A DNA stretch of 33,008 nt from Candidatus Woesearchaeota archaeon (GTDB lineage Archaea; Nanobdellota; Nanobdellia; SCGC-AAA011-G17; GW2011-AR20), in the NCBI GenBank assembly GCA_016181245.1, contig JACOZR010000002.1, positions 1 to 33,008 on the forward strand, read 5' to 3'. Below the pieces are notes generated by a model. That model worked only from the letters and a program-made list of their open reading frames with translations. It made no database searches and was not told the origin of the DNA. The translations under genes and the position numbers were made by a program. Numbering within the stretch: position 1 is the first letter of the stretch; each line of letters begins with the position of its first letter. Positions 1,299 through 22,178 of this stretch are shown here, piece after piece.

Positions 1299-4154
1299 AT
1301 GGAAAATGTAATTGAAAAAAGAGTAGAAAAGATAAAATCTATTTTAGGTAACTTTAATCTTAATGAAAGTAAGGTTAAATACATAGGCTTATACTTAATC
1401 TCATTATTAATAGTTTACCTTGTATTCCAAAATAAATTTGTGGTTGGAAAGTTCTACTTGTTTGTTCTAATCCCTATAGTATCAATAATACTCTTATTGC
1501 TTGGGAAATATGTGGCAGGAATGCTAACAAGCATAATAGGATTTGCTTCAATATTAAGGTTACAATCATTACCAAACCTCATAGATGCAACAACAGGTAA
1601 ATACATCACAGCAGACCCTGATGCTTTAGCATTTTTAAGATATACAAAAGAAATAGTTGAAAACGGAGCGTTATCTGCAGTAGACACATTAAGGTATTAC
1701 CCAGAAGGTTACAGTAATCTAGCAGAATTTAACTTTCTTTCTCAAATTGTTGCAGCATGGTATAAACTTTTACATTTGTTCATACCTTCACTTTCAATTG
1801 AGTTGATTCAAACAACATATCCTGCATTTTCATTTGCAATAGCAATGGTTTTCTTCTTTTTATTTGCAAGAAGATTATCTAATACAAAAGTAGCTGTTTT
1901 GGCTACAACAATATTGTCATTTATTCCAATGTTCTTGTTTAGAACATTAACTGGTGTTTCGGATAAAGAAGCTCTGGGTTTAGCCTTTATGTTTGCAGCA
2001 TTCTACTTTTACATAGCCGCAGTTCAAACGCAATCAATAAAAAAATCAACAGCACTCGCTCTTTTAGCAGGATTATCTACAGGCTTCCTAGGCTTAATCT
2101 GGGGAGGGGTAAGTTTCATTTTCCTTATATTTGGTATATTCAGCATAGTAAAGATAACAGCAAATAGCTTCACAAAAAAAGACTTTTACAATTATTCAAT
2201 TTGGATGTTTACAACAATGATTGTACTAAGCTCATTTTATCCAGAAAGGTTTACATTAAACGCGTATTTAACATCAATAACAACAATGATAATGCTCGCT
2301 GCTTTCTTCTTCTGTTTAATCCACTTTCTAATAATCCACTTAAAATTATTTGGAATACAAGAAAGATTTAAAGACAAGTTTCCATCTTGGATGATAAGCG
2401 GTTTAATAACTGTTTTATTTTCAATAATACTCTTTTCAATAATATATGGTCCAACTTTCCTTTTGGATCAGGTTACAAATTTAACGAATTCGTTAACAAA
2501 GCCATTTGCACAAAGTAGGTGGGCTATAACTGTTGCAGAATCCCATCAGCCTTTTTTCAAGGGTGGCAGTATGTCATGGATAAATGAATTCAATAATAAC
2601 AAGTATATAATCTTCTTATTCTTCATAGGCATAATAACTGTCTTCTATAAATTAGCAGGAGATATAGGTAAAAATAAGTGGTTAGGCACATCTTTATTCA
2701 GTATATTCATATTTGGGGTAATACTAAGCAGATATTCTGAAAGTTCAGTATTCAACGGAGAATCTTTAACATCACAAATTACATACTTTGGGTCCATAGC
2801 AGGATTATTCATCATGCTATGTGCAGCATCTTATATATGGTTTAAAAAAGACAAGCAATTATTTGAAAAATTAAAGGAAATAAAAAAAGAATATTTCTTT
2901 GTGATAATCTGGTTCATAATAATGGCAATCGGAGCAAGAAGCGCTTTAAGGTTATTTATCGTTCTTGCACCGGTAGTTTCTTTTGTAGCAGCTTATTTCA
3001 TTATAGAACTGTCAGAATACTTAATAGGGCTAATAAAAACACAAAAAGAAAGATTTTACAAAATATCATTTACCGTAATATTGATTTTTTTTATAATGTC
3101 AATACTTTGGCCTCTTGGCTCTGTGGTGTCAGCGGTTCCAGTAGCAAAAAGTATTCCAATAATAAATCATGATGGCTTGGTATTCCAATTTGCTTCAGCT
3201 TCATTAGGCGCAGCTAGAGGCACTGGTTCAGTATATGATCAACAATGGCAGCTAGCTGGTAAATGGGTAAGAGAGAATACCAAAAAAGAAGCCGTGTTTG
3301 CTCACTGGTGGGACTATGGTTATTTGGTTCAAACTGGTTTTGGCAGAGCCACATTAACGGATGGGGGTAATGCAATTGGCTCGAGAAATTATTTTTCAGG
3401 TCGTCATTTAATGACAGCTCAAAGTGAAAAAGAAGCATTAGAATACATGAAAACATATGGAGCAACTCACTTATTATTTGTCTCAGATGAAATAGGAAAA
3501 TATCCCGCTTATTCATCAATAGGCTCAGATGCAAATTATGATAGATTTTCTCAAATAACAACTTTCTCATTAAGCCAGCAGGAAACAAGAGAAACAAGAA
3601 ATGCAACAGTATTGGTTTACAAGGGCGGAGCGCCTTTGGAAGATGATTTAAATTTTAATGGAGAAATATATCCCGCAGGAGCATCAGTAATAGGAGCAAT
3701 CCTTGTTCCAATAACAAACGCTGGAACAGACAAGCAATCAGTTTCTCAGCCTTCAGCAATATTGGTTTATCAGGGAAAGCAAGTTGAAATTCCAATAGGC
3801 TGTGTCTATATAGACAAGCTTTACAAATTTGAAAATGCACCATTAAAATCCTGTTTGAGAGTAATGCCAACATTCACAAATAATCGATTAGACAATGGAA
3901 TAGGCAACGCACTATATCTATCTCCGAGAGTATCTCAGGGGTTATTTGCTAGGTTATACTTATTAAACGAACAAATGGAAGGATTTAAATTGGTTTACTC
4001 AGATGAAAGTGGTGTTCCTCATGCTTTCTACAACGGGAGATTGATAGGCCCATTAAAAATTTGGGAAGCAAAATATGATGAAAAAGTAGAAACAGTTCCA
4101 GAATACTTAAGGCCAGAATTACCAGATCCTAGCGTAAACTTGGTAAGAAGATAA
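1299..4154 (+). CDS. aglB: Oligosaccharyltransferase, STT3/AglB family
   Basis: 951 aa, many TM segments, catalytic WWDYG motif (AHWWDYGYLVQTGFGRAT). Confidence 0.93.
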   Translation: MENVIEKRVEKIKSILGNFNLNESKVKYIGLYLISLLIVYLVFQNKFVVGKFYLFVLIPIVSIILLLLGKYVAGMLTSIIGFASILRLQSLPNLIDATTGKYITADPDALAFLRYTKEIVENGALSAVDTLRYYPEGYSNLAEFNFLSQIVAAWYKLLHLFIPSLSIELIQTTYPAFSFAIAMVFFFLFARRLSNTKVAVLATTILSFIPMFLFRTLTGVSDKEALGLAFMFAAFYFYIAAVQTQSIKKSTALALLAGLSTGFLGLIWGGVSFIFLIFGIFSIVKITANSFTKKDFYNYSIWMFTTMIVLSSFYPERFTLNAYLTSITTMIMLAAFFFCLIHFLIIHLKLFGIQERFKDKFPSWMISGLITVLFSIILFSIIYGPTFLLDQVTNLTNSLTKPFAQSRWAITVAESHQPFFKGGSMSWINEFNNNKYIIFLFFIGIITVFYKLAGDIGKNKWLGTSLFSIFIFGVILSRYSESSVFNGESLTSQITYFGSIAGLFIMLCAASYIWFKKDKQLFEKLKEIKKEYFFVIIWFIIMAIGARSALRLFIVLAPVVSFVAAYFIIELSEYLIGLIKTQKERFYKISFTVILIFFIMSILWPLGSVVSAVPVAKSIPIINHDGLVFQFASASLGAARGTGSVYDQQWQLAGKWVRENTKKEAVFAHWWDYGYLVQTGFGRATLTDGGNAIGSRNYFSGRHLMTAQSEKEALEYMKTYGATHLLFVSDEIGKYPAYSSIGSDANYDRFSQITTFSLSQQETRETRNATVLVYKGGAPLEDDLNFNGEIYPAGASVIGAILVPITNAGTDKQSVSQPSAILVYQGKQVEIPIGCVYIDKLYKFENAPLKSCLRVMPTFTNNRLDNGIGNALYLSPRVSQGLFARLYLLNEQMEGFKLVYSDESGVPHAFYNGRLIGPLKIWEAKYDEKVETVPEYLRPELPDPSVNLVRR

Positions 4155-7223: not shown

Positions 7224-7847
7224 ATGGTAAATCTTACTGTAGACATAAAACCAAGTGTAACCTATTCTGCTTATGTAGAAGCTCCTTTTGATAAAGCAAA
7301 AGAAGAATTAGAAAAAGCAGAATACACAGTTATAAGAATGCAGGAAGGACCAGCTTCTTTTGTATCAAGAAATGGAAACTGGGTAAGAGAAGGAGTTATT
7401 TATGTTCCTAATAAAGGCAGATTTTTAACTAAAAATTCACCAATAATGGCAAATGCTCAAGAAGCAACAAAATGTCATAGAAGTAATAAAGAATTTTATT
7501 TAACAGATGCTCAAGTTGAAGAATCTTTAGCAGATTCTGTTGAGCTTTCAGATAAAGCAATTCCAACAAATAGATTTGCAGAAAATCCAATAACGGTTTA
7601 TGCTTTTGGTGATATTGCAGAACAATATGGTCAGTTTCTAAGAAATGCAGGAATAAAAGAAATGTCTATTTGGTTGGCAAACCAAGAAGACAAGCCATTT
7701 GCAAGGCAAATGTGGCTTCATAGGCTTGTTGTAGACAGTAGGTCTGTTCTTGATGGCTACTTCAGGAACTTGGACTATGACGGCAGGGTGCGTGGGGTAC
7801 GTCAAGGTGGCGAAGCCACCGCAAAAAATTTAGAGATCAAGATATAA
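7224..7847 (+). CDS. DGR target (variable) protein 1, C-terminal VR; no signal peptide apparent
   Basis: 207 aa, paralogous to 11251-11985 over most of its length; C-terminus MWLHRLVVDSRSVLDGYFRNLDYDGRVRGVRQ matches translated TR with differences at template adenines. Confidence 0.9.
   Translation: MVNLTVDIKPSVTYSAYVEAPFDKAKEELEKAEYTVIRMQEGPASFVSRNGNWVREGVIYVPNKGRFLTKNSPIMANAQEATKCHRSNKEFYLTDAQVEESLADSVELSDKAIPTNRFAENPITVYAFGDIAEQYGQFLRNAGIKEMSIWLANQEDKPFARQMWLHRLVVDSRSVLDGYFRNLDYDGRVRGVRQGGEATAKNLEIKI
7711..7799 (+). repeat. DGR variable repeat 1 (VR1)
   Basis: Aligns without gaps to TR 12171-12259; over TR 12171-12255, 11 of 12 mismatches are at template A. Confidence 0.93.
7806..7820 (+). 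repeat. Hairpin/cruciform immediately 3' of VR1 (GGTGGC-GAA-GCCACC)
   Basis: Perfect 6-bp inverted repeat with 3-nt loop, also present 3' of VR2, absent from the TR. Confidence 0.85.
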
Positions 7848-7883
7848 AAAGCTTTAAAAGAATAATTACTTCTTACATCTTTA

Positions 7884-8606
7884 ATGAAAAAAACCATAGT
7901 AGACATAGTAATCCCTGTTTATAATGAAGAAAAAATACTAGAAAAAAGCGTATCAACTTTAACAGATTTTCTCAACAAAAATTTCAAGCATGACTGGCAA
8001 ATAATAATTGCAGACAATGCATCAATAGACAAAACATTAGAAGTAGCAAATAATTTATCAAAAAGATATAAAAAAGTTAAAGTCTTGCATTTAGACCAGA
8101 AAGGAAGAGGCAGGGCATTAAGAGCAGCCTGGACTCAAAGCAAGGCAGATATTGTAAGTTATATGGATGTTGATTTATCTACAGATTTAACATTCTTTCC
8201 ATTAATGATTGATTCTTTATTAAATGGATACGATGTTGCAACAGGCTCTAGATTAATGAAGGGAGCAGAAATTAAAAGATCATTAAAAAGAGAAATACTC
8301 TCAAGAGGATATAATGTTTTAGTAAGAATTATTCTAGGCGTTAATTACAAAGACAGTCAATGCGGTTTCAAAGCGGTTACAAGAGAAATAGTTGATAAAA
8401 TAGTTCCAGAAGTAAAAGACAACGCTTGGTTTTTCGATTCAGAATTATTATTCAGGGCGCATAAAAAAGGCTACAAAATAAAAGAGATCCCAGTTAAATG
8501 GATAGAAGACGAAGATAGCAGAGTTAAAATTGTAAATACGGTAACAAACTATCTAAAATCAATAGCGGTTCTAAGATTAGAATATATGTTTAAGAGAAAA
8601 AAGTAA
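7884..8606 (+). CDS. Family 2 glycosyltransferase (dolichyl-phosphate sugar synthase-like)
   Basis: DIVIPVYNEEKILEKSV..., IIADNASIDKT, YMDVDLSTDL (DxD), DSQCGFKA motif. Confidence 0.88.
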   Translation: MKKTIVDIVIPVYNEEKILEKSVSTLTDFLNKNFKHDWQIIIADNASIDKTLEVANNLSKRYKKVKVLHLDQKGRGRALRAAWTQSKADIVSYMDVDLSTDLTFFPLMIDSLLNGYDVATGSRLMKGAEIKRSLKREILSRGYNVLVRIILGVNYKDSQCGFKAVTREIVDKIVPEVKDNAWFFDSELLFRAHKKGYKIKEIPVKWIEDEDSRVKIVNTVTNYLKSIAVLRLEYMFKRKK

Positions 8607-8611
8607 ATTTT

Positions 8612-8815
8612 TTAACTAAAAAAAGGTTCAAGGAGTTTGTACCATATGACTAATTTACCAGCATCTAAAGCAATGGGACCACTAAAATCTCTTTCTGCAG
8701 CTAGAGAGTAAACACTTCTCCAAGAGTCATATCTCCTTATTGCACCAGTGGGTACTAATGCTATATCCAGTTTCTCCAATAAGCTAAAATCGTTTACCCT
8801 TCCTTCCTCTATCAT
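8612..8815 (-). CDS. Small hypothetical ORF, possibly a gene remnant
   Basis: 67-aa ORF in an otherwise empty intergenic gap; no recognised family. Confidence 0.3.
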   Translation of the reverse strand: MIEEGRVNDFSLLEKLDIALVPTGAIRRYDSWRSVYSLAAERDFSGPIALDAGKLVIWYKLLEPFFS

Positions 8816-8906
8816 GCCAGTAACATAAACTTTACATTTTAAATGTTTTTCGCTAATAAAATTTAAGTTTGCAAAGTTTTATTAATTAACATAAAATTTT
8901 AATTCT

Positions 8907-9377
8907 ATGTTAAAAGCAGATCTCCATCTACATGCAAAAGAAGACATTAGAGACGCAGTAAAATATACTGTTAAAGAATTAATAGACCACATGGCTTCTA
9001 AAGGTTTTCAAGTAATAGCTTTAACGTTCCATGATCAAAGCTATAACTCAGAAGAAATGAATAATTATGCAAAATCAAAAGGGATTCTAATAATTCCAGG
9101 AATAGAAAGAACAATAAAAGGAAGACATGTATTAATCTACAATCTAGACCATAAAAAAGCTGAAGAAATCAAAGATTTTGAAGATTTAAAAAAAATAAAA
9201 AATGAAAATGTTTACACCTTAATAGATTCAAAACAAGATATAAATTCGATAATAAAAGCAATAAAATCAAATAAAGTGCAATTAGTAACAAAGCCTTTGC
9301 CTTTTTCAGTATTCTTTAAAACGTTATTTTATATGATATTCTTGTCACCAATAAAAACATTCAAGAGAAGAAAATAA
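8907..9377 (+). CDS. PHP-domain phosphoesterase-like protein
   Basis: KADLHLHAKED N-terminal PHP motif; LIIPGIERTIKGRHVLIYNL. Confidence 0.75.
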   Translation: MLKADLHLHAKEDIRDAVKYTVKELIDHMASKGFQVIALTFHDQSYNSEEMNNYAKSKGILIIPGIERTIKGRHVLIYNLDHKKAEEIKDFEDLKKIKNENVYTLIDSKQDINSIIKAIKSNKVQLVTKPLPFSVFFKTLFYMIFLSPIKTFKRRK

Positions 9378-9472
9378 TTTACCCTTTATTTTGTAATTTA
9401 AGTTTGTACAGGGTAAAACTCAAAGAGATTAAATAGCGCAATATTTATTTATACAAAGAAATTAAAGAAATC

Positions 9473-10093
9473 ATGGAGCAGAAGAAATTATTAACAGTTC
9501 TTTCAATAATTGTTGGAATATTTTTAGCATGGTCTTTGATTAATCCAAAAGATTATAGTGTTTGGTTTTTAGAAACATTTCCAGTAATATTTGGGTTTCC
9601 TATTCTATATTTTACTTATAAAAAATTCAAGTTCACAAATTTAACCTATACTTTAATGGCTTTGCATGCAATGGTCTTAATATGGGGGGGTCATTATACG
9701 TATGCTGATAATCCTTTATTTAACTGGATTAAAGATTTACTAAGCTTAGAAAGAAATTATTATGATAGGCTAGGTCATTTCTTCCAGGGATTTGTTCCTA
9801 TTTTAATAGCCAGAGAAATTTTGTTAAGAAAAACAAGATTAAAGCAGGGAAAAATGCTGTTCTTCTTGTTAATATGCGTTGTTGCATTTATCACTTCATT
9901 TTATGAGCTTATGGAATGGTCCTCAACGTGGGGTTTACCTCCAGAACAAGGAATAGACTTTCTAGGTAGCCAAGGTGATTTATGGGATGCACAAAAAGAT
10001 ATGACTATGGCTTTTATTGGCGGAATATTCGGACTTTTATTCTTTTCAAAGTTGCAAGATAAACAAATTAAGAAGATTACAACTAGACAGTAG
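9473..10093 (+). CDS. DUF2238/YjdF-like integral membrane protein
   Basis: YDRLGHFFQGFVPILIAREILLR ... YELMEW ... GSQGDLWDAQKDM pattern, several TM helices. Confidence 0.75.
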   Translation: MEQKKLLTVLSIIVGIFLAWSLINPKDYSVWFLETFPVIFGFPILYFTYKKFKFTNLTYTLMALHAMVLIWGGHYTYADNPLFNWIKDLLSLERNYYDRLGHFFQGFVPILIAREILLRKTRLKQGKMLFFLLICVVAFITSFYELMEWSSTWGLPPEQGIDFLGSQGDLWDAQKDMTMAFIGGIFGLLFFSKLQDKQIKKITTRQ

Positions 10094-10129
10094 AGAAACA
10101 TTTATAAACAATCTATAACCTCGTACCTT

Positions 10130-10408
10130 ATGAAAGATTTATTGATGAAACATAGAAGTTTACTGATTGGTGTGGGCTTATCTTTATTGGCAGGTTATGG
10201 AATAAGGTATTATCAAGATTCTATTAAAGAAACTCCAGCCTATAGGGTAGTTTTAGCTTATCCTGGGAGAGAATGTTCTCCAGATTTTGAAATTATGCAG
10301 AATGATGAAATACTACTTTTAAATAATAGGAATCATGAAAATGTTATTGTGCATCATGATTTAGAAGAGAAAATAGGGAAGATAGACGTTTTAAGATTTG
10401 ATCAATAA
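10130..10408 (+). CDS. Small hypothetical protein with N-terminal TM segment
   Basis: 92-aa ORF, hydrophobic N-terminus. Confidence 0.5.
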   Translation: MKDLLMKHRSLLIGVGLSLLAGYGIRYYQDSIKETPAYRVVLAYPGRECSPDFEIMQNDEILLLNNRNHENVIVHHDLEEKIGKIDVLRFDQ

Positions 10409-10851
10409 TTTTTCGTAGTATCAACAACTTTAACATTATACCCATTTTCCAAAGCCTCAATTCTGCAAACATCAAATATTTCAGCATCTAAATTTTCCCT
10501 AACTTTAGCTTTATTATAACCTCTTTTTTCAAGTCTTTTTTTCAATGTCTTTAAATCACATTTAGTAATAAAACAAACTTTGACATATTCTTTAGGAAGA
10601 TAATGGCTCAAATGTCCATCAATAACTAAGGTTTTCTTAGAATTTTTTATTAAATTAACTAAAATTTTATTTAACTTTTTAACATCAACAATTATAGACT
10701 TTCTTTTCTTATCGAATCCTTCTTTTAATTTATTTTCTTTAATAACATCGTTAATATCTAAGTAACGATAATCTTTTTCTTTAGAAATTTTCTTAGCAAT
10801 AGTAGTTTTTCCAGTTCCAGGAGTTCCACTTACAATTATAGCTTTTTTCAT
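10402..10851 (-). CDS. Adenylate kinase 6/Fap7-like P-loop kinase
   Basis: MKKAIIVSGTPGTGKTTIAKKI Walker A; ORF track start (10914) overextends into the neighbouring gene, better ATG at 10851. Confidence 0.82.
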   Translation of the reverse strand: MKKAIIVSGTPGTGKTTIAKKISKEKDYRYLDINDVIKENKLKEGFDKKRKSIIVDVKKLNKILVNLIKNSKKTLVIDGHLSHYLPKEYVKVCFITKCDLKTLKKRLEKRGYNKAKVRENLDAEIFDVCRIEALENGYNVKVVDTTKNY

Positions 10852-10852
10852 A

Positions 10853-11134
10853 TTAATCAACAGTAAACAATTTAGAATCATGTACATCCCATAATCCAAG
10901 TCTAGCTCCAGCATCTAACCACCCATGAGCATAATTCAAAGCAGCAAAAGCATCTACAACTTTTCCATTATCATAAAAATGATGAGCATCTTTAATATAT
11001 CTCTCAATCATGTCTAAAAAATCATCTCTTTCATTATTTAATTTAGTTCTATTTTTAGCTTTCTTAGCTTCTTTGAAAGCCTTTTCAGTAACAGAAAAAT
11101 ATTTCTCAATCTTTTCTTTAGTAATTTCTTTCAT
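10853..11134 (-). CDS. DUF357-family helical protein
   Basis: YIKDAHHFYDNGKVVDAFAALNYAHGWLDAGARLG matches the archaeal DUF357 signature. Confidence 0.75.
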   Translation of the reverse strand: MKEITKEKIEKYFSVTEKAFKEAKKAKNRTKLNNERDDFLDMIERYIKDAHHFYDNGKVVDAFAALNYAHGWLDAGARLGLWDVHDSKLFTVD

Positions 11135-11204
11135 AATAATTTAATATAATAGCCCATTATAAAATTTATCAAATAGTCTAAAAAATTATTATCCCTAATA
11201 AATA

Positions 11205-11250
11205 GTAACAAACCGAAAAGCTTAAAAAGATAAACTTTCTACAATAAATC
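11205..11250 (+). promoter_or_regulatory. Putative promoter of DGR target gene 2
   Basis: gtaacaaaccgaaaagcttaaaaagataaactttctacaataaatc; near-duplicate of 7178-7223. Confidence 0.6.
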
Positions 11251-11985
11251 ATGGTAAATCTTATTGTAGATATAAAACCAATTGTAACCTATTCTGCTTA
11301 TGTAGAAGCTCCCTTTGATAAAGCAAAAGAAGCATTAGAAAAAGAAGGATATCACGTTATTTCTTCAAGAGAAAATGCTCAATTAAGAATGCAGGAAGGA
11401 AAAGATGCTTTCGTATCAAGAAATGGAAATAGAACAAGAGAGGCTTTTATTTATAATCCTAAAACTGGTATTTTCTTAACTAATAACTCACCAATAATGG
11501 CAAATGCTCAAGAAGCAACAAACTGTCATAGAAATAACAAAGAATTTTACTTAACAGATGCTCAAGTTGAAGAGTCTTTAGCAGATTGTGTCGAGCTTTC
11601 AGATAAAGCAATACCGACAAACAGGTTTGCAGAAAATCAAATAACTGTTTATGCTTTTGGCAATGTTGCAGAGCAATACGGTCAATTTTTAAAAAGTGCA
11701 GGAATAAAAGAAATGCCTATTTGGTTAGCAAATTTAGAAGACAAGCCATTTGCAAGGCAAATGTGGCTTCTTAGGCTTGTTGTAGGCAGTAGGTCTGTTC
11801 TCAATGGTAACTACAGGTACTTGAACTATGACTACGGGATGCGTGGGGTACGTCAAGGTGGCGAAGCCACCGCGAAAAATTTAGAGGCTTCTCAAACATA
11901 CACAATTCAAGACATTCAAACAGCTCTAAAAACAAAAGGTCTTACTGGAATTGAAAGTATATTGATAGACTCTTTAAGACAATAA
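11251..11985 (+). CDS. DGR target (variable) protein 2, with VR followed by a ~40-residue C-terminal tail
   Basis: 244 aa, paralog of 7224-7847; FARQMWLLRLVVGSRSVLNGNYRYLNYDYGMRGVRQ matches the translated TR. Confidence 0.92.
   Translation: MVNLIVDIKPIVTYSAYVEAPFDKAKEALEKEGYHVISSRENAQLRMQEGKDAFVSRNGNRTREAFIYNPKTGIFLTNNSPIMANAQEATNCHRNNKEFYLTDAQVEESLADCVELSDKAIPTNRFAENQITVYAFGNVAEQYGQFLKSAGIKEMPIWLANLEDKPFARQMWLLRLVVGSRSVLNGNYRYLNYDYGMRGVRQGGEATAKNLEASQTYTIQDIQTALKTKGLTGIESILIDSLRQ
11762..11850 (+). repeat. DGR variable repeat 2 (VR2)
   Basis: Gap-free alignment to TR 12171-12259; over TR 12171-12255, 9 of 10 mismatches are at template A. Confidence 0.93.
11857..11871 (+). repeat. Hairpin/cruciform immediately 3' of VR2 (GGTGGC-GAA-GCCACC)
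   Basis: Identical to the hairpin at 7806-7820. Confidence 0.85.
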
Positions 11986-12016
11986 TTCTTTTAAGCAATA
12001 ACTTCTTTTAATTTTT

Positions 12017-12283
12017 GTCCTGACTATACCAAGATTATTCAGTGAAGTATAATTTGGACTACACGCCAATTTACTAGTACATTGTTTAATTTGATTTTAA
12101 GTCATGAAATTCAGAGGTTTCATGCGTGAGACCTCAGTGGATATTGGAAGTAAACTGGCTAAAAGCGTCCTGTGGCTTCATAGGCTTGTTGAAGACAATA
12201 GGTCTGATCTCAATGGCAACAACAGGAACTTGAACTATGACAACAGGATGCGTGGAATAGTCCAATGTCAGGATAACATTATC
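12017..12283 (+). ncRNA. Putative DGR template RNA (structured leader + TR + short spacer to the RT)
   Basis: Contains the TR; upstream inverted repeats at 12017-12059 (GTCC/GGAC, TATAC/GTATA) and 12114-12135 (9-bp stem, UGCG loop). RNA boundaries are inferred. Confidence 0.55.
12171..12259 (+). repeat. DGR template repeat (TR)
   Basis: 89-nt near-copy of VR1/VR2 upstream of the RT, rich in AAC/AAT/GAC codons in the VR frame; mismatches concentrate at its adenines. Confidence 0.94.
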
Positions 12284-13291
12284 ATGGAACGAAATGGCCT
12301 TTATCCCCAAATACACAGTATGAAAAATTTATTTTTAGCTTTCAAAGAAGCAAGAAAAGGAAAAACAAAAAAGTACTATGTTAAAAGATTTGAAAAAAAT
12401 CTTATAAAACAGCTTTTAAATTTGAATATTGAATTAAAATCTCAAAAATATCATCCAGAACCGTTAAGAACTTTTATTTTAAGGGATCCTAAAACAAGAA
12501 AAATATCAAAATCTGTATTTAGGGACAGGGTAGTGCATCACGCTCTTGTAAGGATGATAGAACCGATTTTCGATAAAAATTTTATCTACGATTCCTGTGC
12601 TAATAGAAAAGGAAAGGGAAACCTATTCGCATTAAAAAGATTTGATTTATTCAAAAGAAAAATAACAAATAACCTAACATCAAAAGCTTTTTGTCTAAAA
12701 GCAGACATCAAACATTATTTTCAAGAAGTCAATCATGAAATTCTGCTTAACGTAATAGAAAGAAAAATTAAAGATGAAAAAGTTATGTGGCTAATTAAAC
12801 AAATTTTGGGGGGGGGCGAACAGAACAAAGGTATGCCTCTAGGAAACTTAACTTCTCAATTTTTTGCTAACATTTATTTAAACGAATTAGATAGGTTTGT
12901 AAAACATAAATTAAAAACGAAATATTACATCAGATACGTAGATGATTTCGTAATACTGTATAACTCTAAAAAACAGCTAGAAATTTGGAAAAGTGAAATT
13001 GACAACTTTCTAAAAGAAAAATTAAAACTGGAATTACATCCAGATAAGTCAAAAATTATTCCTTTATCAAGAGGCATAGATTTTGTCGGGTTTAGAAATT
13101 TTTATCATCACAGGCTTTTAAGAAAAAGAAATATTGGAAAGATGTTTTCAGTTATTAACAAACACAAAAAAGGAGAGGTTTCCAAAGAAAAATTAATTGA
13201 AAGCTTTCAGGGTTGGCAGGCATATGCAAAATGGGCAAATAGCTATAAAATAACAAAAAAAGTGAATAATGAAATTCAGAGTCAAAAATAA
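12284..13291 (+). CDS. DGR reverse transcriptase
   Basis: YIRYVDDFVIL catalytic box, KGMPLGNLTSQFFANIYLNELD (DGR-type xGxxxSQ), VFRDRVVHHALVRMIEPIFD; ORF track starts at 12104 but the TR lies in that extension, in-frame ATG at 12284 fits DGR RT N-termini. Confidence 0.95.
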   Translation: MERNGLYPQIHSMKNLFLAFKEARKGKTKKYYVKRFEKNLIKQLLNLNIELKSQKYHPEPLRTFILRDPKTRKISKSVFRDRVVHHALVRMIEPIFDKNFIYDSCANRKGKGNLFALKRFDLFKRKITNNLTSKAFCLKADIKHYFQEVNHEILLNVIERKIKDEKVMWLIKQILGGGEQNKGMPLGNLTSQFFANIYLNELDRFVKHKLKTKYYIRYVDDFVILYNSKKQLEIWKSEIDNFLKEKLKLELHPDKSKIIPLSRGIDFVGFRNFYHHRLLRKRNIGKMFSVINKHKKGEVSKEKLIESFQGWQAYAKWANSYKITKKVNNEIQSQK

Positions 13292-16743: not shown

Positions 16744-17310
16744 ATGGACAAGGGGGGGGCAAATAAAGATGTTGGAATAAACATAACAACTGCAGTAGAT
16801 TCTTTGGTCTTGTTGGTAAATTCAAAAAAAAGAATCCCTATGGAAGAAGCTTCTAAGATTTTAGGCTTGCCAGACAATATAATTAACGAATGGGCTACTT
16901 TTCTAGATGAGGAAAATGTTATTAAAATAGAATATCAGTTAACGACACCTTTTTTGGTAGAAACAGAAGACACAAAGAAAGTATTGGAAGAAAAAGTAAA
17001 CATCGATATAGAAAAAGATCTTATTTCCAGAAAAATTTCTGTAATGATATCGGCAATAGACAAGATAAACGTAAGTTCATCACTTGTCTTGAAAAATGAA
17101 GAAGACTTAAAAAAAATAGTTTTAAACAAGGATCTTGGAAAAAATGACTCATTGTATGCTCAAAAATTTTACCTAAAAATAAGGCTAAATGAGTTATTGG
17201 GTTTACTAAAGAATCAAAAGTCTGTAGATATCTTCAAGATAAATGAAAGACTAGCAATCTTAGAAAAAAAGAAGAAAGTATTCGAAGATAATTTTAAAAA
17301 AGAGAGGTGA
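16744..17310 (+). CDS. Helix-rich protein co-operonic with the pilus ATPase
   Basis: 188-aa ORF overlapping the start of the T2SSE ORF; HTH-like N-terminal half. Confidence 0.65.
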   Translation: MDKGGANKDVGINITTAVDSLVLLVNSKKRIPMEEASKILGLPDNIINEWATFLDEENVIKIEYQLTTPFLVETEDTKKVLEEKVNIDIEKDLISRKISVMISAIDKINVSSSLVLKNEEDLKKIVLNKDLGKNDSLYAQKFYLKIRLNELLGLLKNQKSVDIFKINERLAILEKKKKVFEDNFKKER

Positions 17311-20300
17311 ACATGGCTGTAATAGACACGTATGGCTTTTATGCAGGTAACATTCCAGTTAGGATAACCATAGAAAGTAATCCTGCGGAATTTATATTAA
17401 TCTACAAAGTAAGTATCTCTCAGATTGGTTCAAATACAGAGGTTATTCTGGACAAAATAAGAGAAGAACTGGTTGAAAAAGTAAAGCTTGGAATAGGGGA
17501 CATAACTGATCCAAAAAAACTTGATTATGTGAGAGATAAGTTTCAAAAGACAATTGTAAGCTTAATAAGAAAGTATTTTCCAGATATTACAGATGAAACA
17601 CTAGACTTTTTTACAACATATTTGATGCATAAAAGTTTTGGTTTAGGAAAAATAGAAATCTTAATGGGAGATCTAAATCTCGAAGAAGTAGTTGTAAATG
17701 GTGCAGAAGATCCAATATGGGTTTATCATCATAAACACGGATGGTTAAAAACAAATATTATGCTAAAAGATGAAGAAGTCATCAAACATTATTCTAGTTT
17801 AATAGGAAGAAAAGTAGGAAGGAGTATAACTCTATTAACCCCTTTGTTAGATGCAAGCCTTGAAACTGGAGACAGGGTAAATGCAACTTTATTTCCAATA
17901 TCTACAAAAGGGAATACAATTACTATCAGAAAGTTTGCCACAGAGCCAATAACAATCACAAAATTTTTACAAAACAGGGCTTTGAGCTTCCCAGCAGCAG
18001 CATTGATCTGGTTAGGTGTTGAGTTTGAGTTTTCTACAGTTATTAGTGGGGGCACTGCAACAGGGAAAACTTCTATGCTTAATGCAGTCGGAGGATTTTT
18101 TCCACCAAATCAAAGAATAATTTCCGTTGAAGATAGTGTCACCGGAGATGCTGAAATTCTTTACAGAGAGAATAGAGAAATTAAAAAATCTTCAATGAGT
18201 GAACTTATCGATAAGCAAATAAAAAACGATAAGATAACCTTGCATGATGGAACAGAACTAGCCCATAACCAGAGTATAGAAGTACTTAGCATGGACAAAA
18301 AAGGAAAAGTTTCCTTTTCTAAACCAAGCTCATTCATAAGGCATAAAGTAAAAAAGCCAATAATTGAGATTAGACTAGCCAGTGGCAGAAAAATTTCTGT
18401 AACAAAAGACCATTCATTGTTTAGTTTAATTAATAATGAAGTAAAAGAAGTAAAAGGATCTTCTCTAAAAGAGGGATCTTTTATCGCCACACCAAGAAAA
18501 ATTTCATATACGGGAACTAAAAAGGTTTTTGATCTTTCAAATCACTTAGATAAATTTTCTGGGTTCATGATCCAGGGGAAGCCTGTAAAGAATTTAATTA
18601 AAAAGTATGGCAAAGAAGTTGTTCTCAACAAAAGCAATAGGCAGCATTATAGGAATTGTGATATAGTTCCTGTAGAAGTATTCAAGAAGCTTATTCCTTA
18701 TATTAAAGAGAATGATAAATCAAAATTACAGATAGTACCTTCAAGGAGCAATAAAAACGGTAGAATTAGCTTACCACTAATTATCAAATTTGATTCTTTA
18801 ATGGGAAAAATAGCAGGTATGTGGCTTGCTGATGGTTGTTATGACAAAAAATCAATACTAATAAGCGATCCAAATGATGAATCTAAAAAAATAATTGAAG
18901 AGTTTGCTAAAAGATTTAGTGCACGGACAAATCTACATAGTGATAAAGTTACAACTATGATAAACTCAAAATGTTTAAGGGTATTATTTAAGGAAGTATT
19001 TGGGTTTAAGGGAAATGCTTATACAAAAGAAATGCCTTCTTGGATATTTAATCTAGAAGATAAAGTTGTTGGTAATCTTCTTAAGGGCTATTTTAGCGGG
19101 GATGGGTGTGTAAAAAAATATGAGATTTGTGTAAGCAGTTCTTCAAGAAAACTTTTGGAAGATGTCCAAACTTTGCTTTTAAGATTCGAAATTCTTATGA
19201 GGATAGGTAATGCACTTAAAAAAGATAAAACTTATGAAGCGAGAATAGGCACTGTTAAATTTTTATCTTTGTTTAAAAAACACGTAGGCTTTACTCAAAA
19301 TTACAAGAAAGATAAGCTTGATAGACTATTGGATAAAAAGCCAAGCGATGTTTCTGATATTATTCCACTATCTAAAAATTGTTATTTAGAGCTAAAAAAA
19401 GCAGTAGGGGCATATCTTAAAGAAAAACTTACATATAAAAGTTGGACATCTTGGCAAGGCAGGTACAAAAAAAGATCGCATATAGGAAGATCATACCTTT
19501 CAATATTGATTAAAAGCCTGAACATAGCCGATATATCTTTGCTAAATCAGGAAATGCAAAAAATTGTCGATTTAAGTAAAAATGACATATTTTGGGACAG
19601 GATAGTAACTATAACAGAAAAAAGCCACGACGGGTATGTTTATGATTTAAGTGTTCCTGAAAGAGAGAATTTTGTTTGTAGTAATATAATAGCACATAAT
19701 ACCAGGGAGTTGGAGTTAGCAAAATACATGCATTGGGTTCCAATGGTTACTAGGTCCCCTAATATCGAAGGGAAAGGCGGAATTGCCATGCTTGATTTAA
19801 TAGTAAATTCATTAAGAATGAGGCCAGACCGTATTGTAGTTGGAGAGATAAGAAGGAAACAAGAAGCTGAAACTCTTTTTGAAGCAATGCATACAGGTCA
19901 CTCAGTTTATGCTACTGTTCACGCAAACAATGCAGAAGAAACAGTAAACAGGTTAACAAACCCCCCCATTGAGGTTCCTAAGGCTCTTTTGCCAGCTATT
20001 GGAATGATAATTGTAATGTACAGAAATAGGAGAACAGGTATAAGAAGAATTTTCCAATTAGCTGAAATAACAAACTCTTCAGAAGCAAATGTTTTGATGC
20101 AATATGACTTCACAAAAGATAATATATTATCTGCAAATGAATCAAAGAAGTTTATGCCCGATTTAGAAATGCAAACTGGGATGACAAGAAACGATATAAA
20201 TAATGATTTAAGAGACAAAGTTGAGGTTCTTAAATGGCTGGTTAAAAATAATGTAATAGGGGTCAATGAAATAGGTAAAGTTGTCGCTACTTATTACACC

Positions 20301-20339
20301 AATAAAGAAGGTTTAATGAGTTTCATTACAAAACACTAA
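17307..20339 (+). CDS. Type II/IV secretion (FlaI/TadA/VirB11-like) ATPase interrupted by an intein
   Basis: GGTATGKTS Walker A, RMRPDRIVVGEIRRKQEAETLFEAMHTGH; extein reads ...RIISVED/TRELELAKYMHW across an inserted intein. True start may be ATG 17313. Confidence 0.93.
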   Translation: MNMAVIDTYGFYAGNIPVRITIESNPAEFILIYKVSISQIGSNTEVILDKIREELVEKVKLGIGDITDPKKLDYVRDKFQKTIVSLIRKYFPDITDETLDFFTTYLMHKSFGLGKIEILMGDLNLEEVVVNGAEDPIWVYHHKHGWLKTNIMLKDEEVIKHYSSLIGRKVGRSITLLTPLLDASLETGDRVNATLFPISTKGNTITIRKFATEPITITKFLQNRALSFPAAALIWLGVEFEFSTVISGGTATGKTSMLNAVGGFFPPNQRIISVEDSVTGDAEILYRENREIKKSSMSELIDKQIKNDKITLHDGTELAHNQSIEVLSMDKKGKVSFSKPSSFIRHKVKKPIIEIRLASGRKISVTKDHSLFSLINNEVKEVKGSSLKEGSFIATPRKISYTGTKKVFDLSNHLDKFSGFMIQGKPVKNLIKKYGKEVVLNKSNRQHYRNCDIVPVEVFKKLIPYIKENDKSKLQIVPSRSNKNGRISLPLIIKFDSLMGKIAGMWLADGCYDKKSILISDPNDESKKIIEEFAKRFSARTNLHSDKVTTMINSKCLRVLFKEVFGFKGNAYTKEMPSWIFNLEDKVVGNLLKGYFSGDGCVKKYEICVSSSSRKLLEDVQTLLLRFEILMRIGNALKKDKTYEARIGTVKFLSLFKKHVGFTQNYKKDKLDRLLDKKPSDVSDIIPLSKNCYLELKKAVGAYLKEKLTYKSWTSWQGRYKKRSHIGRSYLSILIKSLNIADISLLNQEMQKIVDLSKNDIFWDRIVTITEKSHDGYVYDLSVPERENFVCSNIIAHNTRELELAKYMHWVPMVTRSPNIEGKGGIAMLDLIVNSLRMRPDRIVVGEIRRKQEAETLFEAMHTGHSVYATVHANNAEETVNRLTNPPIEVPKALLPAIGMIIVMYRNRRTGIRRIFQLAEITNSSEANVLMQYDFTKDNILSANESKKFMPDLEMQTGMTRNDINNDLRDKVEVLKWLVKNNVIGVNEIGKVVATYYTNKEGLMSFITKH
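18135..19700 (+). mobile_element. Intein with LAGLIDADG homing endonuclease (522 aa)
   Basis: N-terminal splice block SVTGDAEILYRE, C-terminal block YVYDLSVPERENFVCSNIIAHN followed by T; LAGLIDADG-like IAGMWLADGCYD and LLKGYFSGDGCV. Confidence 0.93.
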
Positions 20340-21150: not shown

Positions 21151-22178
21151 TAGAATCATTAGAAAAATTATTTTTATCGAAATCATTGGCAGAAAAAATA
21201 AAATATGCACTATTAAAATCTGGAATAAAACTTTCATTTGAGTCTCTTTTCAAAAGAGCAATGGTAATGATTTTTATTTTAAGTATACTTGGTTTGATAA
21301 TTTTTGGTTCAGGAGCTATAAAAGGTCAAAGCGCAGTAAAAATCCCTTTAATTTTATTGAGCACATGGGTAATATCTTTCTTTGTTTCTCTAATAATCAT
21401 AGCAGGGTTAACTTTCATTGTTTTGAACTTTAAAAGATACCAAAGAACAAAAAAATTAGAAGCAGTCCTCTCTGATTATTTGCAGTTAGTTTCAGCTAAT
21501 CTAGGAGCAGGTATGCCTATTGATCAGGCCTTATGGTATGCTATTAGAGACAGATTTGAGATAATATCTGAGGAAATGGAGCTTGTTGCCAAAAAAACTA
21601 TGTCTGGTGAAGATCTAAATGCAGCACTAACTGAATTTGCAGAACATTATGACTCTGAACTACTAAAGAGAAGCATGATTTTACTAATCGAGGGTTTAGA
21701 AGCAGGAGGAGAGGTTGCTGTATTGGTAAACACAATCGCTTGGAATGTCCGAGAAACCCAAATTCTAAAAAAAGAGATAAGTTCCGATGTAGTTACATAT
21801 TCAATATTTATAGGGTTTGCTTCATTGGTTGCAGCTCCATTATTATTCGCTTTAAGTTTTAGAATAAACATAATCATGGGGACAATATTAAGCAAGATAG
21901 ATCTTAAGGGCGCAAGTGCAGGTGGAGCTACCCTTGCAGGGGGAATTTCCTTGTCTAATATTGGGGGAGGAGGTTTGCCATCATCAGATTTCAAGACATT
22001 TGCACTTATCTCTTTAGGCTTAACTGCTTTAATATCAGCAATGCTTATCTCAGTTGTGCGAGAAGGCAGCATAAAAGCAGGTCTTAAATATATCCCCTTA
22101 TTTGTTATTATAGCGATATTATTATTTTTATCCGCATCAGCAATAATGAGCACATTATTTGCGGGAATAGGGCTATGA
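21147..22178 (+). CDS. Second type II secretion F-domain membrane protein
   Basis: LEAVLSDYLQLVSANLGAGMPIDQALWYAI...; TM helices; ATGA overlap with upstream gene. Confidence 0.85.
   Translation: MIESLEKLFLSKSLAEKIKYALLKSGIKLSFESLFKRAMVMIFILSILGLIIFGSGAIKGQSAVKIPLILLSTWVISFFVSLIIIAGLTFIVLNFKRYQRTKKLEAVLSDYLQLVSANLGAGMPIDQALWYAIRDRFEIISEEMELVAKKTMSGEDLNAALTEFAEHYDSELLKRSMILLIEGLEAGGEVAVLVNTIAWNVRETQILKKEISSDVVTYSIFIGFASLVAAPLLFALSFRINIIMGTILSKIDLKGASAGGATLAGGISLSNIGGGGLPSSDFKTFALISLGLTALISAMLISVVREGSIKAGLKYIPLFVIIAILLFLSASAIMSTLFAGIGL

What the first reader, a model, noticed from the sequence alone, without database searches (positions are those of the whole stretch)
11251..13291. Complete diversity-generating retroelement in an archaeal (DPANN-like) genome
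Target gene, VR, TR and DGR-type RT lie together in one orientation. The RT has YVDD and LGNLTSQ motifs. The TR matches both VRs, with mismatches almost only at template adenines, which is the defining DGR signature. Archaeal DGRs are known (ANMV-1 virus, DPANN), but this architecture with two targets and no recognisable avd gene deserves detailed study.
Basis: partly seen in the sequence, partly recalled or inferred. Interest (0 to 1): 0.95.

Follow-up and report, generated by a model that had tools for sequence, protein, structure and literature searches.

The report
Archaeal diversity retroelement with leader RNA
A DPANN archaeon carries a gene-diversifying retroelement that can rewrite two lectin-like proteins; its template RNA is held closed by a structured RNA in front of the template, which gives an orphan RNA family (RT-16) a likely role and suggests that copying starts differently from the textbook phage system.

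Summary
One template repeat (TR, 12171-12255) matches two variable repeats (VR1 11762-11846; VR2 7711-7795, outside the stated coordinates). 22 of 24 TR-to-VR mismatches lie at template adenines. The reverse transcriptase (RT, 12284-13291) is of DGR type; IMH*/IMH is TGGAAT/TGGGGT, and a GAA-loop hairpin lies inside each target gene. These are the published cis signals of nanoarchaeal (DUSEL4) DGRs, and the target's predicted fold matches a solved nanoarchaeal C-type-lectin DGR protein (5ioo). As a DGR it is a new member of a known kind. No avd is adjacent.

In 83 of 85 related loci the TR starts within 8 nt of the RT-16 end. Two covarying long-range helices, PL and P0, join RT-16 to the bases after the TR; both held up in other orders. 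RT-16, TR and 3' flank thus form one closed template RNA, retron-like in layout, unlike phage BPP-1, whose structured RNA (Rfam Phage_DGR) lies 3' of the TR. Priming from RT-16 is inferred, not shown. I found no paper linking RT-16 to DGRs, but key papers were not readable here.

The parts
7224..7847 (+). Second target gene (207 aa), paralogue of the first, carrying VR2
   Evidence: 78% identical to the VR1 gene over 212 aa
7711..7795 (+). Variable repeat VR2
   Evidence: 13 mismatches to TR over 86 sites, 12 at TR adenines; found in the whole-genome TR search
7793..7798 (+). IMH of VR2 (TGGGGT)
   Evidence: same motif as DUSEL4 DGRs (PMC4372165)
7806..7820 (+). Hairpin GGTGGC-GAA-GCCACC inside the target gene after VR2
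11251..11985 (+). First target gene (244 aa) with VR1; predicted C-type lectin fold
   Evidence: AlphaFold2 mean pLDDT 89.5; only PDB match below E 0.001 is 5ioo, nanoarchaeal C-type-lectin variable protein, E=5.7e-8
11762..11846 (+). Variable repeat VR1
   Evidence: 11 mismatches to TR over 86 sites, 10 at TR adenines
11844..11849 (+). IMH of VR1 (TGGGGT)
11857..11871 (+). Hairpin GGTGGC-GAA-GCCACC inside the target gene after VR1
   Evidence: test over related loci
12015..12024 (+). P0 5' strand (TTGTCCTGAC) of the outer closing helix
   Evidence: pairs with 12267-12276 in the minimum-energy fold; covariation across loci
12018..12167 (+). Rfam RT-16 RNA (RF03019): 5' leader domain of the template RNA
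   Evidence: 72.2 bits, gathering 50
12054..12061 (+). PL 5' strand (TTGGACTA) in the RT-16 leader
   Evidence: pairs with 12258-12265; covariation, swap control, changes on the RT tree
12062..12067 (+). CACGCC junction after PL; its CA dinucleotide is invariant in 35 loci; proposed priming region (inference)
12171..12255 (+). Template repeat TR, in register with both VRs
12253..12258 (+). IMH* (TGGAAT) at the 3' end of TR
   Evidence: identical to the DUSEL4 IMH* motif
12258..12265 (+). PL 3' strand (TAGTCCAA), immediately after IMH* GGAA
12267..12276 (+). P0 3' strand (GTCAGGATAA)
12284..13291 (+). DGR reverse transcriptase (335 aa from ATG 12284; conserved core from 12320)

Best explanation
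This is an intact-looking DGR of the nanoarchaeal/DPANN type. One TR diversifies two paralogous C-type-lectin target genes by adenine-directed mutagenic retrohoming. The template RNA has three parts: the RT-16 leader, the TR, and a short 3' arm ending just before the RT start codon. Two long-range helices close it. P0 joins the 5' end of RT-16 to the far end of the 3' arm; PL joins the RT-16 strand before CACGCC to the bases directly after IMH* (GGAA). PL puts the leader strand in primer polarity at the point where copying of the TR should start. The RT-16 core helix ends where the TR begins, so it could also stop the RT. Shown by sequence comparison: the DGR parts, the adenine-biased variation, the RT clade, RT-16 next to the TR, and PL/P0 covariation. 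Inferred: that the leader primes and bounds cDNA synthesis, that it does some of the work done in phage BPP-1 by Avd and the 3' spacer, and that the element is active now.
For: Adenine bias: 22/24 here, 609/659 in 52 loci of the order, 448/469 in held-out loci of other orders. RT-16 abuts the TR: TR starts within 8 nt of its 3' end in 50 of 52 loci and in 33 of 33 held-out loci. PL, fixed register: 8.37 of 10 paired versus 7.07 (sd 0.16) on re-pairing loci, 0 of 10,000 shuffles as high; held out 8.11 versus 6.71 (sd 0.21), highest shuffle 7.68; off-register shifts of 1-4 give 2.3-4.2. Predicted PL pairing probability 0.62, falling to 0.05 when another locus's 3' arm is swapped in; the same strand pairs locally with probability 0.06. 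On the RT tree PL position 1 needs 7 changes on each side and all 48 rows stay paired. P0: 21.3 versus 16.7 (sd 0.44), held out 23.5 versus 18.2 (sd 0.68). No local avd; the Avd profile reaches at most 36 bits in 103 genomes of the order, against 65-70 bits for two archaeal Avd-like proteins found next to RTs. Target fold: 5ioo.
Against: No RNA, cDNA or read data were available. Aenigmatarchaeota L174 and L180 carry both RT-16 and an Avd-like gene, so RT-16 is not a simple replacement for Avd. In some loci PL is weak or mismatched (L065, L072, L075, L084, L086), and many have a C.A mismatch at position 2. P0 was scored at its best register, which favours pairing; the re-pairing control allows for this. 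Shuffles do not remove relatedness; on well-supported branches alone only 2-3 independent pairs per position remain. The window's whole RNA folds only modestly better than shuffles (z -1.2). A 3' flank of about 64 nt remains that could hold a primer.
Confidence: 0.72

Rival explanations
1. Canonical BPP-1-style mechanism: copying is primed from the 3' flank between TR and RT, and RT-16 only stabilises or folds the transcript.
For: A 3' flank of about 64 nt exists. BPP-1 primes from its 3' spacer (PMC12875486), and the Rfam Phage_DGR RNA maps exactly there in BPP-1. PL and P0 use this flank.
Against: The BPP-1 spacer is 144 nt; here TR-to-RT-core gaps are mostly 47-124 nt and much of the flank is taken up by the 3' strands of PL and P0. 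The conserved structured domain is 5' of the TR across DPANN DGRs.
Confidence: 0.17
2. RT-16 and its long-range helices are mainly a gene-control device: they close the RNA, hide the RT start region and decide between template RNA and RT mRNA.
For: The P0 3' strand ends shortly before the RT start codon; in 25 of 29 loci the first in-frame ATG lies 11-50 nt after IMH*.
Against: Does not explain why PL starts exactly at IMH*, or why the RT-16 3' end coincides with the TR 5' boundary. Not exclusive of the main model.
Confidence: 0.08
3. A decaying, inactive DGR relic.
For: No population data. The VR2 gene lacks about 37 C-terminal residues of the VR1 gene. Fragmented RT copies occur in related genomes. 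A same-genus genome has target paralogues but no RT or RT-16 hit.
Against: RT ORF, catalytic motifs, RT-16, both IMHs and hairpins are intact. VR1 and VR2 differ from each other at 13 of 86 sites and share only 6 changed sites. No TR codon can mutate to a stop through its adenines.
Confidence: 0.1

Closest known systems
DUSEL4 nanoarchaeal DGRs (Paul et al. 2015, PMC4372165)
   Same: IMH TGGGGT and IMH* TGGAAT; hairpin with GRA loop inside the target gene; orphan targets; no risk of nonsense mutations
   Different: That paper notes ORFs of Avd-like size between target and RT; here that interval is filled by RT-16 and the TR and holds no complete ORF of 60 aa or more. RT-16 is not mentioned in the passages read.
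Bordetella phage BPP-1 DGR
   Same: TR/VR, adenine mutagenesis, DGR-type RT, IMH/IMH*, downstream hairpin
   Different: BPP-1 has avd directly 5' of the TR and a 144-nt structured spacer 3' of it, matched by Rfam RF03022 Phage_DGR; here the structured RNA is 5' and no avd is adjacent.
Rfam RT-16 RNA (RF03019)
   Same: Full-length match above the gathering score
   Different: The Rfam consensus pairs the strand before CUACACGCC locally; covariation and folding here pair its last bases with the sequence after the TR. Rfam calls it only 'RT-16 RNA'.
Rfam RT-15 RNA (RF03018) in phage DGRs
   Same: Also ends at the TR 5' boundary: within 6 nt in 31 of 31 loci
   Different: Different RNA family and RT clade; no closing helix could be shown by the same kind of test.
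Retrons
   Same: Structured RNA with proposed primer strand 5' of the template, ends closed by a long helix (retron layout from general knowledge; resemblance of layout only)
   Different: DGR-type RT, TR/VR pair and adenine-directed variation; no retron RNA family matched.

Membership tests
Diversity-generating retroelement | RT of the DGR type ([LIV]GxxxSQ motif, DGR clade) | tested here: met
   LGNLTSQ and YVDD; motif invariant in 17 RTs; DPANN DGR set SH-aLRT 99; best PDB chain 8ub7, 328 aa, the length of BPP-1 brt
Diversity-generating retroelement | TR/VR pair with mismatches concentrated at TR adenines | tested here: met
   22/24 at A; p 7e-7 on the union of sites
Diversity-generating retroelement | IMH/IMH* and downstream hairpin | tested here: met
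   TGGGGT / TGGAAT and 6-bp GAA hairpin after both VRs; perfect hairpins after VR in 30/52 loci against 172/1040 random windows
Diversity-generating retroelement | VR inside a gene with C-type lectin fold (common, not universal) | tested here: met
   AlphaFold2 pLDDT 89.5; Foldseek 5ioo E=5.7e-8, TM 0.66 on the target's length
Diversity-generating retroelement | Accessory protein Avd (in BPP-1; not required of all DGRs) | tested here: not met
   No ORF in the interval; only a 20-bit unlinked hit in the genome, none over cut-off in 103 genomes
Diversity-generating retroelement | Ongoing adenine-directed variation in the population | not testable with these tools
   No reads available
Nanoarchaeal (DUSEL4-type) DGR | TGGGGT IMH, TGGAAT IMH*, GRA-loop hairpin in the target gene | tested here: met
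RT-16 RNA (RF03019) | Covariance-model score above gathering | tested here: met
   72.2 bits, gathering 50, positions 1-158
Retron | Retron-type RT and msr-msd RNA without a VR target | tested here: not met
   Retron St85 RT only 51.6 bits against cut-off 235; TR/VR pair present
Group II intron | Intron RNA with maturase RT | tested here: not met
   158.5 bits against equivalog cut-off 300; no intron RNA matched

The most novel reading that the evidence does not exclude
DGRs come in at least two RNA designs. In the 5'-leader design (RT-16 in DPANN archaea, RT-15 in many phages, neither labelled as DGR in Rfam) the leader pairs with the sequence after IMH* and primes cDNA from its invariant CA junction, retron-fashion, and its core helix ends the cDNA at the TR boundary. 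The 3'-spacer design (BPP-1 Phage_DGR, RT-14) is the other.
Probability: 0.4. Interest if true: 0.82.

Novelty: new variant of a known kind. Interest (0 to 1): 0.62.

Why it matters
How DGRs prime and bound mutagenic cDNA is known mainly from phage BPP-1. This gives an orphan Rfam RNA family a role as part of a DGR template RNA, and predicts from covariation how that RNA closes. It offers a compact, locally avd-free DGR (one RT plus about 262 nt of RNA) as a testable and perhaps simpler system for directed protein diversification. It is also widespread: 107 of 371 sampled genomes of the phylum carry RT-16.

Tried and rejected
AlphaFold2 of the target with 8 sequences failed (pLDDT 41); 20 sequences gave 89.5. 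Viral fold library: no significant match. A strict 'RT-16 replaces Avd' idea was dropped because L174 and L180 have both. A closing helix for RT-15 leaders was not supported by re-pairing (z -0.3); seven phage loci without an Rfam match gave z 3.2, nine CPR-type loci 0.7. The Rfam first hairpin as the main pairing of the PL strand was rejected: 0.06 against 0.62 for PL. The independent-pairs test on starred branches had too few pairs for significance. Weinberg et al. 2017, Paul et al. 2017 and Wu et al. 2018 are not held, and a library search for DGR plus Rfam found nothing relevant, so prior recognition of RT-16 as a DGR RNA cannot be excluded.

Full report
WHAT IS THERE. Within window 7224-13291 lie two paralogous target genes, one TR and one RT, all on the + strand. 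TR 12171-12255 aligns without gaps to VR1 (11762-11846) and VR2 (7711-7795). 10 of 11 and 12 of 13 mismatches are at TR adenines, although A is 27 of 86 sites (binomial 7e-5 and 8e-6, union of sites 7e-7). All changes at A are to T or G. The whole genome (907,905 bases, 83% complete) contains only these three copies. The adenines can encode about 2e14 protein variants and never a stop codon. After each VR comes TGGGGT where the TR has TGGAAT, and then a perfect 6-bp hairpin with a GAA loop inside the target gene. These are the cis signals described for DUSEL4 nanoarchaea (PMC4372165).

THE RT. The ORF beginning at 12104 runs through leader and TR; the conserved protein starts at 12320 and the best start codon by comparison is ATG 12284. 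Motifs YVDD and LGNLTSQ are present; G, S and Q of the latter are invariant in 17 relatives. PHROG RT 2e-114. The best solved relative is 8ub7, a 328-aa reverse transcriptase (1e-53; group II RTs 2.6e-33). BPP-1 brt is also 328 aa; that 8ub7 is the Bordetella phage DGR RT is my own knowledge. The nearest genomes are Woesearchaeota, Pacearchaeota and other Nanoarchaeota MAGs. On the RT tree a 26-row set, DPANN apart from one virus contig (L210), is supported at 99.

THE TARGET. Sequence profiles find nothing above cut-off. With 20 homologues AlphaFold2 gives pLDDT 89.5, and the only PDB match below E 0.001 is 5ioo, 'Accommodation of massive sequence variation in Nanoarchaeota by the C-type lectin fold' (E=5.7e-8). 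No ligand or cellular location is known.

Rfam RF03019 'RT-16 RNA' covers 12018-12167 (72 bits) and ends 3 nt before the TR. It is present in 43 of 103 genomes of the order and 107 of 371 of the phylum, and in 0 of 14 control genomes. In the 52 loci of the order where a TR could be found, the TR starts within 8 nt of the RT-16 end in 50, with 609 of 659 mismatches at A. In loci from other orders, not used to form the idea, 33 of 33 detected TRs start within 8 nt, with 448 of 469 at A. RT-16 also occurs with Micrarchaeota and Aenigmatarchaeota DGR RTs (six of six) and in one virus contig (L210), but in none of the 12 CPR and bacterial loci scanned.

TWO LONG-RANGE HELICES. PL: the strand just before the conserved CACGCC (window TTGGACTA, 12054-12061) pairs with the bases right after IMH* GGAA (TAGTCCAA, 12258-12265). 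In a fixed register, 8.37 of 10 positions pair within a locus against 7.07 between loci (sd 0.16; no shuffle of 10,000 as high); shifting by 1 to 4 gives 2.3-4.2; held-out set 8.11 against 6.71. Position 1 is T-A or C-G, never mismatched, in 63 TR-registered loci. On the RT tree both sides change 7 times, always together (48 rows; only two of these pairs lie on well-supported branches). Swapping 3' arms between loci drops the predicted PL pairing probability from 0.62 to 0.05. P0: the 5' end of RT-16 (12015-12024) pairs with 12267-12276; 21.3 against 16.7 between loci, held out 23.5 against 18.2. In the window's minimum-energy fold P0 encloses a local hairpin and PL, and PL encloses the RT-16 core and the TR. 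The Rfam consensus, which pairs the PL strand locally, fits worse (0.06).

HOW IT PROBABLY WORKS. Shown: one RNA unit of leader, TR and 3' arm, conserved over DPANN, with the TR ends held together at IMH*. Inferred from polarity: the leader strand in PL points 5' to 3' into the TR, so a 2'-OH or a nick in its invariant CA junction could start cDNA at IMH*, in the place of the internal adenine of the BPP-1 spacer (PMC12875486). Inferred from position: the RT-16 core helix ends where TR/VR homology begins, so it may stop the RT, as the end of avd does in BPP-1. cDNA then rewrites VR1 and VR2, guided by IMH and the hairpin, as in known DGRs.

AVD. No ORF of 60 aa or more lies between leader and RT in 52 loci. 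The Avd profile finds no hit above cut-off in 103 genomes (best 36 bits), while two Aenigmatarchaeota have an Avd-like gene between TR and RT (65-70 bits) together with RT-16. Three CPR relatives have an ORF of Avd-like size on the opposite strand between TR and RT (the profile was not run on them). So RT-16 and Avd can coexist, and an unlinked Avd-like protein is not fully excluded.

WIDER PICTURE. Rfam RT-15 occurs in 31 of 48 phage RT contigs tested and ends within 6 nt of the TR start in all 31; a closing helix could not be shown there. RT-14 lies 3' of the TR in one Thermotogales locus. BPP-1's 3' spacer is Rfam Phage_DGR. So Rfam labels one DGR RNA by name and leaves RT-14, RT-15 and RT-16 unlabelled. 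BPP-1 and L195 (3' type) group together on the tree, and the RT-15 phage RTs and RT-16 archaeal RTs fall in separate supported sets; BPP-1 is a long branch, so its place is unsure.

VERDICT. As a DGR this is a new member of the nanoarchaeal kind, already known. The RNA architecture is a new variant as far as I could check; several key papers were not readable, which lowers the novelty claim.

Noticed in passing
L231, L240, L258 and 28 other virus contigs: Rfam RT-15 RNA (RF03018) ends at the 5' boundary of the TR in phage DGRs, so it too looks like a DGR template-RNA leader.
   Followed up: partly
L195 3808-3943: Rfam RT-14 RNA lies directly 3' of the TR (3693-3812) in a Thermotogales DGR, the BPP-1-like side.
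   Followed up: no
L188, L191, L203, between TR and RT, minus strand: ORF of 116-140 aa resembling Avd encoded on the strand opposite to the RT in CPR DGRs.
   Followed up: no
L174 3619-3987; L180 3634-3987: Avd-like genes (65-70 bits to NF033474) between TR and RT in Aenigmatarchaeota that also have RT-16.
   Followed up: partly
L020, L025 (genome G003, same genus): Two target paralogues in a genome with no RT and no RT-16 hit: remote targets, loss, or an assembly gap.
   Followed up: no
window 17307-20339: Secretion-type ATPase ORF that appears to be interrupted by an intein-like insert (by eye), beside membrane-protein and pilin-like genes (SQAAMEFLMTYGWAI at 22175, 22695, 25004).
   Followed up: no
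L222, 15 nt about 134 nt 5' of the TR and in its 3' flank: Perfect 15-bp complement between leader and TR 3' flank in a phage DGR without an Rfam match.
   Followed up: no
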